Assembly (NCBI GenBank): GCA_003488105.1
Contig: DNMS01000387.1
Location: 450-6,580, forward strand
Direction: 5' to 3'
Source of the DNA: Rhodospirillaceae bacterium
GTDB taxonomy: Bacteria > Pseudomonadota > Alphaproteobacteria > Rhodospirillales_A > Casp-alpha2
Length of the DNA stretch: 6,131 nucleotides
The notes under the pieces are model-generated. The model was given only the letters and a program-made list of their open reading frames with translations. It was not told the DNA's origin and did no database searches. Of this stretch, positions 312 through 6,131 are shown piece after piece; the stretch's first letter is position 1; each line of letters starts with the position of its first letter. The translations under genes and the position numbers were made by a program.

Positions 312-710
312 ATGACCAAGAAGGATTACGAGGTCGGCTACGGTAAGCCGCCCACGGCGACCCGGTTTAAGCCTGGTCAGTCCGGCAACCCCAAGGGTCG
401 TCCCAAGGGCAGCAGAAACCTGAAGACCGAGCTGCTTGAAGAAATGAATGAACGCATCGCCGTTCGTGAAGGCGGGGCGTCGCGAAAGGTTTCCAAATTG
501 CGTGCGGTGTTGAAGGCGCTGACTGCAAAAGCCGTCCACGGCGATCCTCGGGCGGCCAACCTGGTCCTTAATCTGGTGATGCGCCTCCTGCTGCATGATC
601 AGTCTGACCCACCGCAGAGCGAACTCACCAAAGCGGACGAGGAAATTCTGGCGGAATTCGAAGCGGAGATTCTCAAGGCAGCCAAGGTCAAGGAGACCGA
701 CGATGGATAA
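312..710 (+). CDS. DUF5681 domain protein, possible small-terminase-like packaging protein
   Basis: This is a 132-aa protein. The start at 312 is chosen over an in-frame ATG at 240 because a GGAGGC ribosome binding site at 300-305 lies 6 bases before it, and the 240 start would run 71 bases into the methyltransferase gene. Residues 9-36 carry the DUF5681 signature, a basic Gly/Pro-rich stretch containing FKPGQSGNPKGRPKG at 19-33. The middle (about 37-95) looks helical, with a stretch around HGDPRAANLVLNLV. The C-terminal third is acidic and charged. DUF5681 genes often sit just before a large terminase. The basic N-terminus plus helical body would suit a DNA-recognition (TerS-like) role, but this is inference from position and composition; the domain has no established function that I know of. 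Its stop overlaps the terminase start by 8 bases (ATGGATAA), indicating translational coupling. Confidence 0.85.
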   Translation: MTKKDYEVGYGKPPTATRFKPGQSGNPKGRPKGSRNLKTELLEEMNERIAVREGGASRKVSKLRAVLKALTAKAVHGDPRAANLVLNLVMRLLLHDQSDPPQSELTKADEEILAEFEAEILKAAKVKETDDG

Positions 711-2208
711 GCAAGACACCTTGAACGCGCTACTGCGTAGCCGGCTGGAACCAATGATCCGGAAAACATTCGAAACCCTGAACCCGGGTGTCCGGTTTCT
801 GCCGAACTGGCATATCGAAGCCCTCGCGTACAAGTTGGAACTTTGCGAACGGCGGGTAGTCAAACGCCTGATCGTGTCAATGCCGCCCCGATACCTGAAA
901 TCCGAGATATGTTCGGTCGCTTTCCTCCTGTGGATTTTCGGGCGGGACCCAAGCGTCCGGATTATTGCCGGCAGCTATTCCGAAGACCTGGCCCGGCATT
1001 TCGGTCGGGCGCGACAGAAAGTCATGGGGACGGATTGGTACCGATCGGCCTTTCGGCATGCCCGGTCCAGTTTGCGGAAGAACACGGAAAGCGAAATCGT
1101 TACCCGAGATGGGGGAGGCTGCTACGCGACCTCGGTCGGCGGCTCCCTGACAGGCAGGGGCGGGAACTTCATCGTGATCGACGATCCCATCAAGGTTGGC
1201 GGAGCAATGTCGCGCGCCGAAAGGAATGCCGTGAACGAATGGTACCGACATACACTTTTCACTCGGCTGAACGACAAAAAGAACGACGTCATCATCATTG
1301 TCATGCAGCGGGCGCACGTCGATGATCTTGCCGGGTATGTCCGAGAACTCGATGACTGGGAGATCCTCGAACTCCCCGCGATTGCTGATGAAGAGGCATG
1401 GATCCAAACCGGTCCGGCCCCCAATGATCGCTATCACCGCCTCCCCGGTGAGCCGCTTCATCCGGAACGGGAAGATATCAGCACTCTTGAGGCGATAAAA
1501 AAGGCGATTGGTGGCTACAGCTTCGGCAGCCAATACCAACAACGTCCAATTCCTATGACGGGGAACCTCATCAAGCGGGAATGGCTGAAATGGATTGATA
1601 AAGCGCCTAACTATTTTGACTGCGACGCCGTCTACCAAAGCTGGGACACCGCGATCGGGACGGAATCGTCGAACTCATATTCGGTCTGTACGACCTGGGG
1701 AGTTCGCTCGGGGAAATACTATCTGTTGCATGTGTTTCGTGAACGGATCGAGGTGCCGGACCTATTGGAGGCGATAAGGTCGCTTGCGGAAAAGTTTCAT
1801 CCGCAGGTGGTTCTGGTCGAGGACACGAGCAGCGGCGCAACGCTCCGGCACCTTGTGAACCTACCGAAAGGAACAAGCCTGATCCCTGTCAAAGCTCCGA
1901 GGATGGATAAAGAGGCCCGGCTTTCATTGACCGCGCCCATGTTTGAAAGCGGGTCGGTTTTTGTTCCCACGGACGAGCCTTGGTCTGCGGATTATGAAGA
2001 CGAACTTCTTTCATTCCCCGAGACGCGGTTCAACGATCAGGTGGACTCGACATCCCAATTCCTTCTCTGGGTTCTCGACCCTCAAGGCGGACATCGGAAG
2101 CATGCCGTAGCAAGCCGCGCCGGAATTTCAGTGAGAAATGGGCGCTATGTCACCTCAAGGCCCCGGAAATATCACCCAATGAGAGATCCAAAAAAGAGGT
2201 GGCGATAA
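703..2208 (+). CDS. terL: Phage terminase large subunit (ATPase plus nuclease)
   Basis: This 501-aa protein is the motor that drives phage DNA into the prohead and cuts concatemers. The start at 703 has AAGGAG at 690-695 with a 7-base spacer; an in-frame ATG at 595 only adds residues antiparallel to family expectation inside the upstream gene. The ATPase half has MPPRYLKSE at 60-68 as the Walker A region, IVIDD at 157-161 as Walker B, and a QRAHVDDL segment at 202-209 (coupling/motif III region). The nuclease half has an RNase H-like fold with candidate metal ligands D315 (SWDTA), D374 (LVEDT) and D445 (FNDQVD). It ends in a basic Arg/Lys-rich tail from about 476. Length and motif order match the terminases that carry the 'phage uncharacterized protein C-terminal' (TIGR01630-type) domain. 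The gene looks intact. No portal gene follows, which is unusual for a working morphogenesis cluster. Confidence 0.93.
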   Translation: MDKQDTLNALLRSRLEPMIRKTFETLNPGVRFLPNWHIEALAYKLELCERRVVKRLIVSMPPRYLKSEICSVAFLLWIFGRDPSVRIIAGSYSEDLARHFGRARQKVMGTDWYRSAFRHARSSLRKNTESEIVTRDGGGCYATSVGGSLTGRGGNFIVIDDPIKVGGAMSRAERNAVNEWYRHTLFTRLNDKKNDVIIIVMQRAHVDDLAGYVRELDDWEILELPAIADEEAWIQTGPAPNDRYHRLPGEPLHPEREDISTLEAIKKAIGGYSFGSQYQQRPIPMTGNLIKREWLKWIDKAPNYFDCDAVYQSWDTAIGTESSNSYSVCTTWGVRSGKYYLLHVFRERIEVPDLLEAIRSLAEKFHPQVVLVEDTSSGATLRHLVNLPKGTSLIPVKAPRMDKEARLSLTAPMFESGSVFVPTDEPWSADYEDELLSFPETRFNDQVDSTSQFLLWVLDPQGGHRKHAVASRAGISVRNGRYVTSRPRKYHPMRDPKKRWR

Positions 2209-2446: not shown

Positions 2447-2686
2447 ATGACCGCCAAGACCAAACCCCACCCCACCAAGTCCGAGTCCATCTTGAAACTT
2501 GTTTCCCGGCCTGCAGGCGCCAGCCTGGGAGCTCTGGAGAAGGCGACGGGCTGGCAGCCTCACAGCGTCCGTGCTGCCCTCACCGGCCTGCGCAAGGCCG
2601 GGCACGCCGTCGAGCGCGGCAAGGACCTGAAGGGCGTCACCGTCTATCGCATCGCCAAGGCTGAAGCAGCGGCGGACGCATGCTGA
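2447..2686 (+). CDS. DUF3489 domain protein, small winged-helix-like
   Basis: This 79-aa basic protein matches the DUF3489 family as I know it. Residues 12-20 (SESILKLVS), 25-33 (ASLGALEKA) and 38-51 (PHSVRAALTGLRKAG) read as three helices. They are followed by a short beta hairpin ending in VTVYRI at 64-69, the layout of a winged helix-turn-helix. DNA binding is therefore likely but not proven, and no target is known. The family typically stands directly upstream of a DUF2924 gene and a serine recombinase, as here, so it may regulate the recombinase or help it on DNA. It is the first gene of the overlapping operon, behind a strong Shine-Dalgarno and a structured leader. Its stop overlaps the next gene's start. 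Confidence 0.85.
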   Translation: MTAKTKPHPTKSESILKLVSRPAGASLGALEKATGWQPHSVRAALTGLRKAGHAVERGKDLKGVTVYRIAKAEAAADAC

Positions 2687-3114
2687 TGCTCGACGACCTG
2701 GGCGGCATGACGACGGCGGAACTGCGGGCGGCTTGGGAAGAAGACCTGGGCCGCTCGCCGCCCGCCCGGGCGAGCGCTGGTTGGATGCGGTCGGTGCTCG
2801 CCTATCGCATCCAGGAGCGAAAGGGTCCACGTCTGTCTAACGCCACAAAGCAGGAACTGGAACGCATCGCCCGGGCGCTCGAGAAGGACCGGGGCCATCA
2901 GCCGAAACCGACCCGCCAGTTGAAGCCGGGCACGAAGCTGCTCCGGGAATGGAACGGCGTCGTCCATGAGGTCCTGATGCTCGACGATGGTGCTGAATAT
3001 AGAGGAGTCCGCTTCCCCAGTCTCACGGCCGTCGCCAAGGAGATCACGGGAGCCCACTGGTCGGGCCCTCGCTTCTTCGGCCTGAAAACCAGGGGCAAAG
3101 CAGATGGCGGGTGA
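2680..3114 (+). CDS. DUF2924 domain protein, recombinase-associated
   Basis: This 144-aa protein matches DUF2924. The N-terminal part (residues 10-70) looks helical and includes RASAGWMRSVLAYRIQE at 30-46, typical of the family. The C-terminal part (about 82-136) carries the conserved block GTKLLREWNGVVHEVLML, then FPSLTAVAKEITG (112-124) and HWSGPRFFGL (126-135). The ATG at 2680 overlaps the DUF3489 stop; a second ATG at 2686, with TGATG coupling and GGCGGA 9 bases ahead, is an equally possible start six bases later. The gene overlaps the recombinase start by 11 bases. Co-occurrence with serine recombinases suggests an accessory role in recombination (for example site choice or direction control). 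That is inference from gene order; no biochemical role is known to me. Confidence 0.88.
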   Translation: MLMLDDLGGMTTAELRAAWEEDLGRSPPARASAGWMRSVLAYRIQERKGPRLSNATKQELERIARALEKDRGHQPKPTRQLKPGTKLLREWNGVVHEVLMLDDGAEYRGVRFPSLTAVAKEITGAHWSGPRFFGLKTRGKADGG

Positions 3115-4675
3115 GCGGAAGCTGAACTGCGCCGTTTACACGCGCAAGTCGTCGGAGGAGGGGTTGGAGCAGGAGTTTAATTCCCTCGACGCCCAGCGGG
3201 AGGCTTGTGAGGCCTACATCGCCAGCCAGAAACATGAAGGCTGGCGCCTGCTGAAAGACCGCTACGACGATGGCGGCATCTCCGGTGGGACCATGGAGCG
3301 TCCGGGCCTAAAACGCCTGCTGGACGATGTGGAGGCGGGGAAGGTCCAGATCGTCATAGTCTACAAGGTGGATCGGTTGACTCGCTCGCTCACCGACTTC
3401 GCTAAGATCGTCGAAATTTTTGATTTACACGGTGCGTCCTTTGTCTCCGTTACCCAGCAGTTCAATACAACGAGCTCCATGGGGAGGCTCACGCTCAACG
3501 TGCTGCTCTCCTTCGCCCAGTTTGAGCGCGAGGTCACGGGTGAGCGCATCCGCGACAAGATCGCGGCGTCCAAACGCAAGGGCATGTGGATGGGCGGCAA
3601 CCCGCCCCTCGGCTATGACTGCAGGGACCGGAAACTGGTGGTGGTCGGGGCGGAGGCGGAAACCGTCCGCTACATCTTTCGGCGCTATGTAGCTCTCGGC
3701 AACGTGCGGGCGCTGAAAGCCAACCTGGAAGCTGCCGGTATCGTCAGCAAGATCTGGACCTCGGCAAGCGGCCGTCGGATCGGTGGCAGGCCCTTCGCCC
3801 GCGGCGCCCTCTACCACCTACTGCAGAACCGCCTCTACCTGGGCGAGATCGTCCACAAGGACCGGACCTACCCGGGCCAACACGCGGCCATCATCGACCA
3901 GACGCTGTGGGACGAAGTGCAGGCGATGCTCGCTGCCAACCGGATCGGGCGCAGGCGCGGTACCAACGCCAGGGAGCCCAGCCTGCTTGCCGGCATCCTG
4001 TTCGACGAACACTGCCGCCGCCTGACGCCCAGTCACGCCAACAAGGGCGGGCGGCGCTACCGCTACTACGTCACCAATCCACGAGATGAAGACGGTCAGC
4101 CGGCAATTCGTCTGCCGGCCAAAGAGACGGAGAACGCCGTGCTCGCCGAATTAAGGCGGCACTTGGCACAGGAGAGTGAACTATCAGGCCGTGCTTCGGA
4201 TGTGGAAGTCGATGCGGCCGAGTTCCTGCGAGCAAGCGTCACCAAGATTGTTCTTGGGAAGGCTGAGATTGAAATCCACCTTCTGGAAGTTGATCAGACG
4301 AAGGCGTCCATTCTGGCTGTTGAGTACGGACTGAGACGGCGCGGCGTCGAGGCGAAGTTGGTACTTAGCCCCGGTCTTCATCGGCGACAGCCGACGCTGG
4401 ACCAAGCCCTGATCAAGGTCGTCGCGCGCGCAACTTATTGGAACAAAAGATTGATTGAAGGTCATATGCCTTCGATATCTGCCATCGCAAAATCCGAAGG
4501 TCTGGCACATACATATGTACTTCGGATTCTGAAACTTTCCGTCCTGGCACCGGATATCGTCAGAGCGATTCTAAGCGGAGAGCATCCGATAAACGTCACC
4601 GCCGAGAAGCTGACCCGATTGGCGCATCTTCCAGATTCCTGGGACGAACAGAGGCAAATTCTTGAACACCTCTAA
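3104..4675 (+). CDS. Large serine recombinase (resolvase/invertase family)
   Basis: This 523-aa protein cuts and rejoins DNA through a 5'-phosphoserine link, probably for integration and excision of the element. The ATG at 3104 has AGGGG at 3091-3095. The resolvase domain (about 7-155) holds YTRKS at 12-16 with catalytic S16, YDDGGISGG at 54-62, and DRLTR at 90-94 with the active-site arginines R91 and R94. The recombinase domain (about 165-275) begins GNPPLGYD. The zinc-ribbon-like segment (294-325, LLAGILFD to RYRYYV) has only one cysteine, C304, so it probably binds no zinc. A C-terminal helix-turn-helix-like region lies at about 455-482 (SISAIAKSEGLAHTYVLRIL), followed by LAPDIVRAIL. The gene looks complete. 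G+C drops from about 67% to below 50% in its last third by hand counts, suggesting a mosaic C-terminus. It converges with the zinc-ribbon gene six bases away. Confidence 0.95.
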   Translation: MAGERKLNCAVYTRKSSEEGLEQEFNSLDAQREACEAYIASQKHEGWRLLKDRYDDGGISGGTMERPGLKRLLDDVEAGKVQIVIVYKVDRLTRSLTDFAKIVEIFDLHGASFVSVTQQFNTTSSMGRLTLNVLLSFAQFEREVTGERIRDKIAASKRKGMWMGGNPPLGYDCRDRKLVVVGAEAETVRYIFRRYVALGNVRALKANLEAAGIVSKIWTSASGRRIGGRPFARGALYHLLQNRLYLGEIVHKDRTYPGQHAAIIDQTLWDEVQAMLAANRIGRRRGTNAREPSLLAGILFDEHCRRLTPSHANKGGRRYRYYVTNPRDEDGQPAIRLPAKETENAVLAELRRHLAQESELSGRASDVEVDAAEFLRASVTKIVLGKAEIEIHLLEVDQTKASILAVEYGLRRRGVEAKLVLSPGLHRRQPTLDQALIKVVARATYWNKRLIEGHMPSISAIAKSEGLAHTYVLRILKLSVLAPDIVRAILSGEHPINVTAEKLTRLAHLPDSWDEQRQILEHL

Positions 4676-4681
4676 TGCCGG

Positions 4682-4846
4682 TTATTCCCAGCCTGGGCGG
4701 ATATCCGTGCGATTACATTCAGGACAATGAATCGCCCAAGTTCTTTTGCCTTCTTTGCGGCGTTCGCGCGACTCTTCAGGAGAGAGCGTTTCTTCCTCAA
4801 ATCGATGTCCGCAATTCAAGCAACGATAGCGGACCATTTCTGGCAT
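4682..4846 (-). CDS. 54-aa double-CxxC zinc-ribbon protein
   Basis: This small gene is read on the minus strand from ATG at 4846 to TAA at 4682-4684. The product has two cysteine knuckles, RCLNCG (C9, C12) and HCPECN (C41, C44), 28 residues apart. They are separated by a charged Glu/Arg/Lys-rich linker, and the protein ends in RTDIRPGWE. Four cysteines in this arrangement would bind one zinc in a rubredoxin-like ribbon. GGAG at 4854-4857 lies 7 bases before the start. The start is only 16 bases after the cyclase stop, so the two genes form an operon. The reading is favoured over the opposite-strand frame starting at 4675 by the paired CxxC motifs, the Shine-Dalgarno and the operon spacing. 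Function is unknown; nucleic-acid or protein binding, or regulation of the cyclase, are guesses. Confidence 0.82.
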   Translation of the reverse strand: MPEMVRYRCLNCGHRFEEETLSPEESRERRKEGKRTWAIHCPECNRTDIRPGWE

Positions 4847-4862: not shown

Positions 4863-6011
4863 TCAGTGTTCCAGCCGTTCGATGAACATCTCCCATAAGA
4901 ATTCGGCTGCCTCTTCCGGGGAGAAACGTCTGTCGTGGTTCCCGTGCATCCGCATTCCCATCGGTTTCAGGAACAACTCATGGCCGTCATCCTCGACGTG
5001 GATTGTCTCGTTGTAGGAGTTGTCCGCGTCGATGCTGAAACTCCCTTCCGCATAACCGATCCCTTCTGAGTATGACCTTTGCGATAACCAAATCTTGCAC
5101 CGATTCTTGCTGTCGCCGTTCACATAAACGTCGCACGTGAATTTCAACGAATGGATCGTTTGGATTGTCGCGTCTACCTCCGGATATTGATTGCTGACGC
5201 TGTTGGCGGCCGTTTCAAAGTAGTGCTTGGCGGTGACAAAAGCGTCCCGCAGGAAGTTGTCTCGGTCGCGATCCGTGATCCTTCCTTTTATCTTCGGCAC
5301 ACGCGGTGTCTTGCCGATCTGCCCGCTTGTTGCTGGGCGCGCGGAATCTGGCAGAGGGTCATCGGACCGGGAGAGGTCGAACAATTCCATGCTTCCAGCG
5401 CCTTTGGGTAACTGCTGCACGCCAACTGAAGCGAACTGGATATTCGAACCACCCATCCGCGCGAGGGTGTGTTTGAAGGATGGGGAGCACCAGATACGGT
5501 TTGCCTCAACGACAGGTTCGATGCGGGCGGCGGCGTTCATCCCTTGACCGGAAACACCTGTAACTTCGCCGCCATCGATCTCAAGGGCGACGCTGTTCAT
5601 GTCCAAGCCAATTCGGATCTGAACAGGGGAGGGGAAGCCCTCGTTCTCCCAATCTTCATTGCGGAAACGGTCGCGGAACCTCAGGGCTTCCTCGGCTATG
5701 ATCGCCGGCGTGTTGCCGACCACGACAATCCCGTCGCCCCAAGTATTCGCGTGGAGAATGCCATCTACGGAACTCGCCTGTTTCGCCAGCGTTTTGACGA
5801 GGCCTGCAACCCGCGTCTTGAGCGCGTCGCCCTTGATCGTGGAAGACCCAACGATGTCAGCGTATAAAATTGCGCAGGTTCTCGACTCAGTGGCCATGGC
5901 TGGCGGTCCAGATTGGGTGTTGAGCGTCCAAACTGCATCCCGAATGTAACCGTCAAAACGGCCGACAGAGATTTTCGGGCCAGAACTAACCGTCTTATAG
6001 CTCGAGAGCAT
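4863..6011 (-). CDS. Class III nucleotidyl cyclase fused to an uncharacterised C-terminal domain
   Basis: This 382-aa soluble protein has no visible membrane segment. Residues 45-212 are a class III cyclase domain, which makes a 3',5'-cyclic nucleotide from an NTP. Metal ligands are D52 (YADIVGSS) and D93 (WGDG); the transition-state pair is N159 and R163 (MNAAAR). The usual purine-selecting Lys is replaced by N89, and the partner Asp position near 152 by Gly or Thr, so the base specificity is open. A Pro/Ser-rich linker (about 214-244) leads to a second domain (246-382): a helix, a strand-rich part with NRCKIWLS, DNSYNETIHVEDDG and LFLKPMGM, and a final helix. From memory, similar tails occur on bacterial TIR-domain proteins, hinting at a shared sensing module; this needs a search. 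Start: ATG 6011 fits the promoter at 6056-6061, but ATG 5897 (M39), right before the domain, is possible; neither has a strong Shine-Dalgarno. Confidence 0.85.
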   Translation of the reverse strand: MLSSYKTVSSGPKISVGRFDGYIRDAVWTLNTQSGPPAMATESRTCAILYADIVGSSTIKGDALKTRVAGLVKTLAKQASSVDGILHANTWGDGIVVVGNTPAIIAEEALRFRDRFRNEDWENEGFPSPVQIRIGLDMNSVALEIDGGEVTGVSGQGMNAAARIEPVVEANRIWCSPSFKHTLARMGGSNIQFASVGVQQLPKGAGSMELFDLSRSDDPLPDSARPATSGQIGKTPRVPKIKGRITDRDRDNFLRDAFVTAKHYFETAANSVSNQYPEVDATIQTIHSLKFTCDVYVNGDSKNRCKIWLSQRSYSEGIGYAEGSFSIDADNSYNETIHVEDDGHELFLKPMGMRMHGNHDRRFSPEEAAEFLWEMFIERLEH

Positions 6012-6084: not shown

Positions 6085-6102
6085 AACCGGAGGTTTGTCC
6101 GG
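6082..6102 (-). terminator. Intrinsic terminator of the tRNA gene
   Basis: On the minus strand CCGGA (6102-6098) pairs with TCCGG (6091-6087) around a six-base loop CAAACC and is followed directly by TTTTT (6086-6082). The stem is short (five pairs). It stands 7 bases past the CCA end of the tRNA, the usual place for a tRNA terminator. Confidence 0.65.
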
Positions 6103-6109
6103 GACGGAA

Positions 6110-6131
6110 TGGCGGAGAGGGAGGGATTCGA
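6110..6131 (-). tRNA. 3' end of a tRNA, probably tRNA-Ser, cut by the window edge
   Basis: The minus strand from the edge fits tRNA geometry exactly. There are six of the seven T-loop bases (TCGAAT), the 3' half of the five-base T-stem (CCCTC), a seven-base acceptor strand CCTCTCC, discriminator G, and an encoded CCA (6112-6110). The acceptor 5' strand would be GGAGAGG, and this start with G73 is typical of bacterial tRNA-Ser. The anticodon lies outside the window, so the amino acid is inferred. A terminator follows. tRNA 3' ends are common integration sites for mobile elements, so this may be one boundary of the accessory region. Confidence 0.75.

What the first reader, a model, noticed from the sequence alone, without database searches (positions are those of the whole stretch)
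4863..6011. Class III cyclase with intact catalytic core but non-canonical base-selecting residues
D52, D93, N159 and R163 align with the two metal-binding aspartates and the Asn/Arg transition-state pair of class III cyclases, so the enzyme should be active. By hand alignment the position that is Lys in adenylate cyclases (two residues before the Gly-Asp) is N89, and the second base-selecting Asp position is Gly/Thr. Neither the Lys/Asp (ATP) nor the Glu/Cys (GTP) pair is present. Pyrimidine cyclases of the Pycsar anti-phage systems are one group of class III enzymes with altered base pockets, so cCMP or cUMP synthesis is possible.
Basis: partly seen in the sequence, partly recalled or inferred. 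Interest (0 to 1): 0.72.

Follow-up and report, generated by a model that had tools for sequence, protein, structure and literature searches.

The report
Cyclase on a TIR-protein tail domain
A bacterial mobile element carries a two-gene unit in which an enzyme predicted to make a cyclic-nucleotide signal takes the place of the immune TIR domain, joined to the same tail domain and followed by the same small zinc-binding partner gene, which suggests that bacterial defence proteins can swap one signal-making enzyme for another.

Summary
The minus-strand ORF 4863-6011 is an uninterrupted class III cyclase with both metal aspartates (D52, D93), N159, R163 and K203, and with N89 at the Lys position and G152 at the Asp position. 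It is a family trait: 0 of 16 aligned N/E-(S/T)-W-G-D relatives have Lys or Asp there. The pyrimidine inference is possible but untested. The main finding was missed. Residues ~240-382 are a separate domain (CTD) matching the tail of a PADLOC ThsB profile (E 1.4e-28); in all 30 other loci whose N-terminus I read intact, it is fused to a TIR domain. I found no other cyclase-CTD fusion. Sixteen nucleotides after the cyclase stop lies a 54-aa zinc-ribbon gene; relatives overlap the end of TIR-CTD genes by 8 bp in 4 loci (two near-identical) or lie near TIR or CTD genes. The pair lies between an integrase gene and a tRNA-Ser 3' end, with no room there for a Pycsar effector. Best reading: mobile-element cargo, probably defensive, in which a cyclase replaced the TIR enzyme on a shared regulatory tail. 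Product, trigger and effector are unknown.

The parts
4863..6011 (-). Class III cyclase-CTD fusion gene (382 aa; alternative start at M39, 5897)
   Evidence: single open ORF; Pfam PF00211 residues 42-211; PADLOC PDLC00420 residues 230-380
5364..5888 (-). Cyclase catalytic domain, residues 42-216
   Evidence: AF2 pLDDT 94.9, class III fold
5733..5747 (-). N89-T-W-G-D93 motif: Asn in place of the base-selecting Lys, family-invariant Trp91, metal Asp93
   Evidence: column table
4866..5294 (-). CTD, residues 240-382: helix, six strands, helix; elsewhere fused to TIR domains
   Evidence: profile built without the window scores it 135.5 bits; AF2 pLDDT 87.9
4682..4846 (-). 54-aa zinc-ribbon gene (two CxxC), 16 nt after the cyclase stop
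   Evidence: relatives near TIR or CTD genes
6110..6131 (-). 22 nt identical to the 3' end of tRNA-Ser genes, at the window edge
   Evidence: exact matches in 11 of 96 genomes, all 11 at tRNA-Ser 3' ends
6087..6102 (-). terminator-like hairpin with T run after the tRNA 3' end
   Evidence: 2 such sites in the region against 2.2 in shuffles, so weak
3104..4675 (+). large serine recombinase (integrase), convergent to the cyclase unit
   Evidence: Pfam Resolvase E 2.6e-38, Recombinase E 9.5e-13
2680..3114 (+). DUF2924 gene upstream of the recombinase
2447..2686 (+). DUF3489 gene
706..2208 (+). phage-type terminase large subunit
   Evidence: Terminase_6C E 1.8e-9

Best explanation
The locus is a two-gene cargo unit, [class III cyclase-CTD] + [54-aa zinc ribbon], of an integrative or prophage-like element, probably of an alphaproteobacterium. 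It is a variant of the [TIR-CTD] + [zinc ribbon] unit in which the TIR enzyme domain has been replaced by a class III nucleotidyl cyclase of the N/E-x-W-G-D family. Inferred mechanism: the CTD, with or without the zinc-ribbon protein, detects a trigger (most likely phage- or mobile-element-derived) and switches on the N-terminal enzyme, which makes a 3',5'-cyclic mononucleotide; an effector encoded elsewhere responds. Shown: architecture, homologies, gene pair, altered pocket, position between integrase and tRNA-Ser end. Inferred: activity, trigger sensing, defence role. Unknown: nucleobase and effector.
For: Cyclase residues intact, fold as expected. CTD: PADLOC ThsB profile E 1.4e-28 at profile positions 164-315, the part after the TIR domain (the TIR-CTD protein of L001 matches the whole profile at E 7.2e-127). 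tblastn on plasmids: 23 of 25 matching records match in the CTD alone, 21 of those 23 annotated TIR; 2 of 25 match in the cyclase alone. Best CTD relative 42% identical (L009). In a CTD tree the window branches among TIR proteins. Zinc ribbon: 9 plasmid records, 7 with a TIR annotation under the match; of the 5 fetched, 3 overlap a TIR-CTD gene by 8 bp (two of these, L114 and L118, near-identical), 1 overlaps a CTD fragment, 1 precedes a TIR without CTD; L045 also overlaps by 8 bp and L033 lies 590 bp downstream. The ribbon is rare: 0 of 111 genomes and 1 of 96, that one being G469, which holds the TIR-CTD L045. Of 7 contexts of the cyclase family looked at, 3 have a PycTM-like (L005) or TIR (L080, L081) gene nearby. 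cNMP cyclases displacing another domain in conflict systems are described in PMC7159879 (passages).
Against: A single example: no second cyclase-CTD fusion in 398 genomes searched with the whole protein (where in many genomes only 4 candidates were scored), 385 and 247 genomes searched with the CTD, 13 loci or 25 plasmid records. No cyclic-nucleotide effector is visible. Nothing here shows that TIR-CTD proteins defend against phage; no gene annotated ThsA or SIR2 is in the 11 plasmid stretches fetched around CTD or ribbon genes (that gene table is incomplete). The window's genome is not held, so genes beyond the tRNA are unseen. The ribbon profile found no locus beyond the 7 it was built from plus the window, so most TIR-CTD loci held show no ribbon, though many have only ~1.5 kb of flank. 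The tree join of the window with L002/L006 is 90/89, not starred, involves a long branch (1.98), and no starred group holds the window.
Confidence: 0.6

Rival explanations
1. A true Pycsar system: the cyclase is a divergent PycC making cCMP or cUMP for a PycTM or PycTIR effector.
For: N89 and W91 sit on pyrimidine-selecting positions of EaPycC and AnPycC by spacing; a family member (L005) lies in a same-strand cluster with a PycTM-like gene (PDLC02364 E 1.7e-29; gene order).
Against: PycC model E 0.041 or none; no effector gene recognised between integrase and tRNA-Ser end; residues differ from those of clades B, D and E in PMC11224242; the CTD is a TIR-protein domain. Solved PycCs are not among the 50 rows, which is inconclusive.
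Confidence: 0.15
2. An ordinary adenylyl or guanylyl cyclase with a relaxed base pocket and a housekeeping role, merely carried by the element.
For: Closest structures are adenylyl cyclases Rv1264 and Rv1900c; Rv1900c lacks the canonical Lys (recalled, no call); 5 of 16 relatives have Glu at position 89, as guanylyl cyclases do (recalled).
Against: Fusion to a CTD otherwise on TIR proteins, a zinc-ribbon gene shared with TIR-CTD units, location beside an integrase, and family members fused to TPR-S or lying near TIR or PycTM-like genes.
Confidence: 0.15
3. The CTD is itself the toxin or effector and the N-terminal cyclase or TIR domain is only the regulator.
For: The CTD is the shared part and the enzyme varies; the zinc ribbon could be its antitoxin (small gene, overlap in 4 loci); some polar positions are invariant or nearly so in A4 (T12, N100, E101, D108, E132), so a site is not excluded.
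Confidence: 0.12
4. The cyclase domain is catalytically dead and serves as a nucleotide sensor or dimerisation module.
For: Base pocket unusual; transition-state Asn lost in 13 of 16 relatives.
Against: In the window D52, D93, N159, R163 and K203 are all present.
Confidence: 0.08

Closest known systems
TIR-CTD proteins filed as ThsB1|ThsB in PADLOC (PDLC00420)
   Same: enzyme + CTD in the same order; CTD homologous along its length; some have the same 54-aa zinc-ribbon gene downstream
   Different: N-terminal enzyme is a class III cyclase, not a TIR domain
Pycsar (PycC + PycTM/PycTIR)
   Same: class III cyclase with non-canonical base pocket; here on a mobile element
   Different: no effector gene recognised in the window, other pocket residues, TIR-associated C-terminal domain, poor PycC profile score
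N/E-x-W-G-D class III cyclase family (this report's name, alignments A5 and A9)
   Same: same motif and pocket; various fused parts
   Different: none of the others found carries this CTD
Thoeris (ThsA/ThsB)
   Same: CTD shared with one PADLOC ThsB profile
   Different: no TIR, no ThsA in the window
Rv1900c and Rv1264 catalytic domains
   Same: closest solved folds
   Different: other regulatory domains (recalled); no TIR-linked CTD

Membership tests
Class III nucleotidyl cyclase | catalytic fold and profile | tested here: met
Class III nucleotidyl cyclase | two metal Asp, transition-state Asn/Arg | tested here: met
   D52, D93, N159, R163
Canonical adenylyl/guanylyl cyclase | Lys/Asp or Glu/Cys base pair | tested here: not met
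   N89/G152
Pycsar | PycC-type cyclase by profile | tested here: inconclusive
   E 0.041, none when started at M39; model unspecific, 148 of 200 genomes
Pycsar | adjacent PycTM or PycTIR effector | tested here: not met
   none recognised in the 6131 bases; 98 nt between cyclase start and tRNA-Ser end, convergent integrase beyond the zinc ribbon; region beyond the tRNA unseen
Pycsar | product cCMP or cUMP | not testable with these tools
   needs enzyme assay
Thoeris | ThsB TIR domain | tested here: not met
   only Guanylate_cyc in Pfam
Thoeris | ThsA effector nearby | tested here: not met
   none among the six window proteins scanned with Pfam; region beyond the window unseen
PADLOC PDLC00420 (TIR-CTD), CTD part | homology over profile positions 164-315 | tested here: met
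   E 1.4e-28; 135.5 bits to a profile without the window
TIR-CTD + zinc-ribbon unit | 54-aa two-CxxC gene directly downstream | tested here: met

The most novel reading that the evidence does not exclude
A defence unit in which the signal-making or NAD-consuming TIR enzyme has been replaced, on a conserved CTD sensor with its own zinc-ribbon partner, by a cyclase of an uncharacterised family that makes a non-canonical cyclic nucleotide, showing that one phage-sensing module can drive TIR or cyclic-nucleotide immunity.
Probability: 0.33. Interest if true: 0.8.

Novelty: new variant of a known kind. Interest (0 to 1): 0.6.

Why it matters
If right, the CTD plus zinc ribbon is a portable sensing module that works with chemically unrelated outputs. 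What the CTD senses becomes directly testable by comparing TIR and cyclase versions side by side. It also points to a cyclase family with an altered base pocket, seen in 15 of 299 Pseudomonadota genomes (four of these supplied rows to the profile), for which I found no product described.

Tried and rejected
Pycsar by profile: rejected as uninformative, because PDLC00734 rings in 148 of 200 genomes and PDLC02368 in 42 of 150. NCBIfam gave no match. Upstream effector gene: none in the window; 98 nt separate the cyclase start from the tRNA-Ser end. ARAGORN finds no tRNA in the window, the match being cut by its end, and Rfam gave one match below its gathering score. Frameshift or broken fusion: rejected, one open ORF.

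Relatives in viral contigs: none for the whole protein, the CTD alignment or the zinc ribbon. Annotated phages: none for the whole protein or the zinc ribbon. Whole-protein scan of genome contigs: none. These contig scans need short exact words and are insensitive. The zinc-ribbon search was empty, and the tool warns that an empty answer alone shows nothing; the same query did ring in G469. The window's recombinase found only one weak relative among the loci held (in L001); in plasmids its best matches are Sphingobium, Eleftheria, Shinella and others. Combined alignment A8 put cyclase rows on the CTD and was discarded.

Literature: the listings (titles and starts of abstracts) showed no paper on a cyclase fused to a TIR-protein C-terminal domain or on a TIR plus zinc-ribbon pair; two searches returned nothing, and supplements and most subscription papers were not searched. 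Seen: PMC11224242 (outline with abstract, passages, part 1 of section 7), PMC11312562, PMC7159879 and PMC4215837 (passages only); PMC2447327 gave no passage. Recalled, not read: the base-pocket residues of Rv1900c and the canonical Lys/Asp and Glu/Cys rules.

Full report

The active site. In alignment A9 D52, D93, R163 and K203 are kept, and N159 too, although 13 of 16 family members have lost it. N89 replaces the Lys that 9 of 10 ordinary enzymes have, and G152 the Asp that 8 of 10 have. A profile of this family (A5, 9 sequences) finds 15 of 299 Pseudomonadota genomes at E <= 1e-36 (four of them sources of profile rows), then nothing until 1e-21, where ordinary cyclases begin. By spacing from the metal aspartates, N89 and W91 fall on positions that choose pyrimidines in two PycCs (PMC11224242: R142/Q144 before D146, K104 before D106). 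That keeps a pyrimidine product possible but does not show it. The closest folds are adenylyl cyclases, one of which, as I recall, also has Asn at this place.

The missed domain. Residues 230-380 match the second half of the PADLOC ThsB profile PDLC00420 at E 1.4e-28. That profile describes a full TIR-CTD protein (L001, E 7.2e-127). In plasmids 25 records match the protein: 23 through the CTD only (21 annotated as TIR proteins) and 2 through the cyclase domain only. Further CTD copies came from genome contigs (13 loci) and genome samples (8 places among 398 genomes; 3 of 385; 3 of 247; each sample includes a genome already known to have one, and the samples overlap). I read the N-terminus of 30 loci: L001-L003 and L006-L008, L009, L010 and L012-L020, L031, L033, L034, L038, L039 and L041, L044, L045, L047 and L048, and L114, L115 and L118. 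All 30 begin with a TIR domain by sight; Pfam TIR_2 was run on four of them and confirmed all four (L001, L002, L114, L045). Not counted: L011 (TIR part broken by stops), L021 (cut by the contig end), L032 (short frame, upstream not examined) and L117 (CTD fragment). A profile built without the window scores its CTD at 135.5 bits. The CTD model (23 rows, pLDDT 87.9) is a long helix, six strands and a second helix, with no confident PDB relative. In a tree of 29 CTDs the window lies among TIR proteins, joined to two Agrobacterium proteins at 90/89 over a long branch; no starred group holds it. A cyclase displacing a TIR domain is the simplest reading, but the tree alone is weak.

The missed gene. 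Sixteen nucleotides after the cyclase stop begins a 54-aa ORF with two CxxC motifs (4682-4846). Relatives (48-64% identity among those aligned) occur in 9 plasmid records, 7 of which show a TIR annotation under the match. I fetched 5 of the 9. In L114, L115 and L118 the ORF overlaps a TIR-CTD gene by 8 bp and is absent from the PLSDB gene table (L114 and L118 are near-identical); in L117 it overlaps a CTD fragment; in L116 it precedes a TIR without CTD. L045 overlaps by 8 bp, and L033 lies 590 bp downstream. A profile of these eight found no further copy in the loci held. In genomes the gene is rare: 0 of 111 and 1 of 96, the one being G469, the genome of L045. A rare small gene that keeps meeting the same rare domain, now next to a cyclase instead of a TIR, is the strongest argument that enzyme-CTD and zinc ribbon form one working unit. 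Against it, most TIR-CTD loci held show no ribbon, many with only ~1.5 kb of flank.

Family context. Other members carry a NUDIX-like part by sight (L004), other C-terminal parts that I did not assign (L030, L040, L055, L056, L058), or N-terminal parts with TPR-S (L037). In Priestia (L005) one lies in a same-strand cluster with a PycTM-like gene and a RyR-domain gene. In L080 and L081 a ThsB_TIR or TIR gene is the neighbour. L079, L082 and L083 showed no such neighbour to the eye (first 60 residues of each ORF), nor did the annotation of L004. Replacement of another domain by a cNMP cyclase in conflict systems is described (PMC7159879, passages). ThsB1 of staphylococcal Thoeris binds a phage capsid protein (PMC11312562, passages), which makes a sensing role in such proteins reasonable but proves nothing for this CTD.

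How it most likely works. The CTD (with the zinc ribbon) receives a trigger; the cyclase domain, which in this fold usually works as a head-to-tail dimer, becomes active and makes a cyclic mononucleotide. No responder is encoded beside it. Shown here: sequence, homology, gene pair, pocket. Inferred: everything about activation and defence. It is not filed as Pycsar (no effector in view, profile not informative) nor as Thoeris (no TIR, no ThsA). It works like a one-protein sensor plus signal synthase. I score it a new variant of a known kind. On checking against the calls I raised one rival (CTD as effector) from 0.10 to 0.12, because several polar CTD positions are in fact nearly invariant.

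Noticed in passing
L007:4548-6423: A TIR-CTD gene directly follows a reverse transcriptase that matches PADLOC RT_VI (E 1.7e-84): possibly a retron with a TIR-CTD effector.
   Followed up: partly
L005:3145-7771: Priestia plasmid cluster on one strand: PycTM-like gene, two hypotheticals, N-T-W-G-D cyclase with a long C-terminal part, RyR-domain gene; the cyclase is not hit by any PADLOC model at E <= 1.
   Followed up: partly
L035, L042, L050, L051, L054, L057, L063: Proteins of about 530-690 aa in the held sequence with an N/E-x-W-G-D cyclase at the C-terminus behind other parts; TPR-S found by Pfam in L037, the same gene as L051.
   Followed up: no
L004:5989-7062: N-T-W-G-D cyclase whose C-terminal part looks NUDIX-like by sight (PADLOC PDC-S07 E 1.8e-7), followed by an annotated NUDIX hydrolase gene.
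   Followed up: no
L116:4001-4914: Zinc-ribbon gene upstream of a TIR protein that lacks the CTD, near a recombinase gene.
   Followed up: partly
L011, upstream of 5974: TIR part interrupted by in-frame stops ahead of an intact CTD frame in a Devosia MAG; decay or sequencing error.
   Followed up: no
PADLOC PDLC00734: The PycC model rings in 148 of 200 Pseudomonadota genomes at E <= 1e-10, so its matches need a partner gene to mean Pycsar.
   Followed up: no
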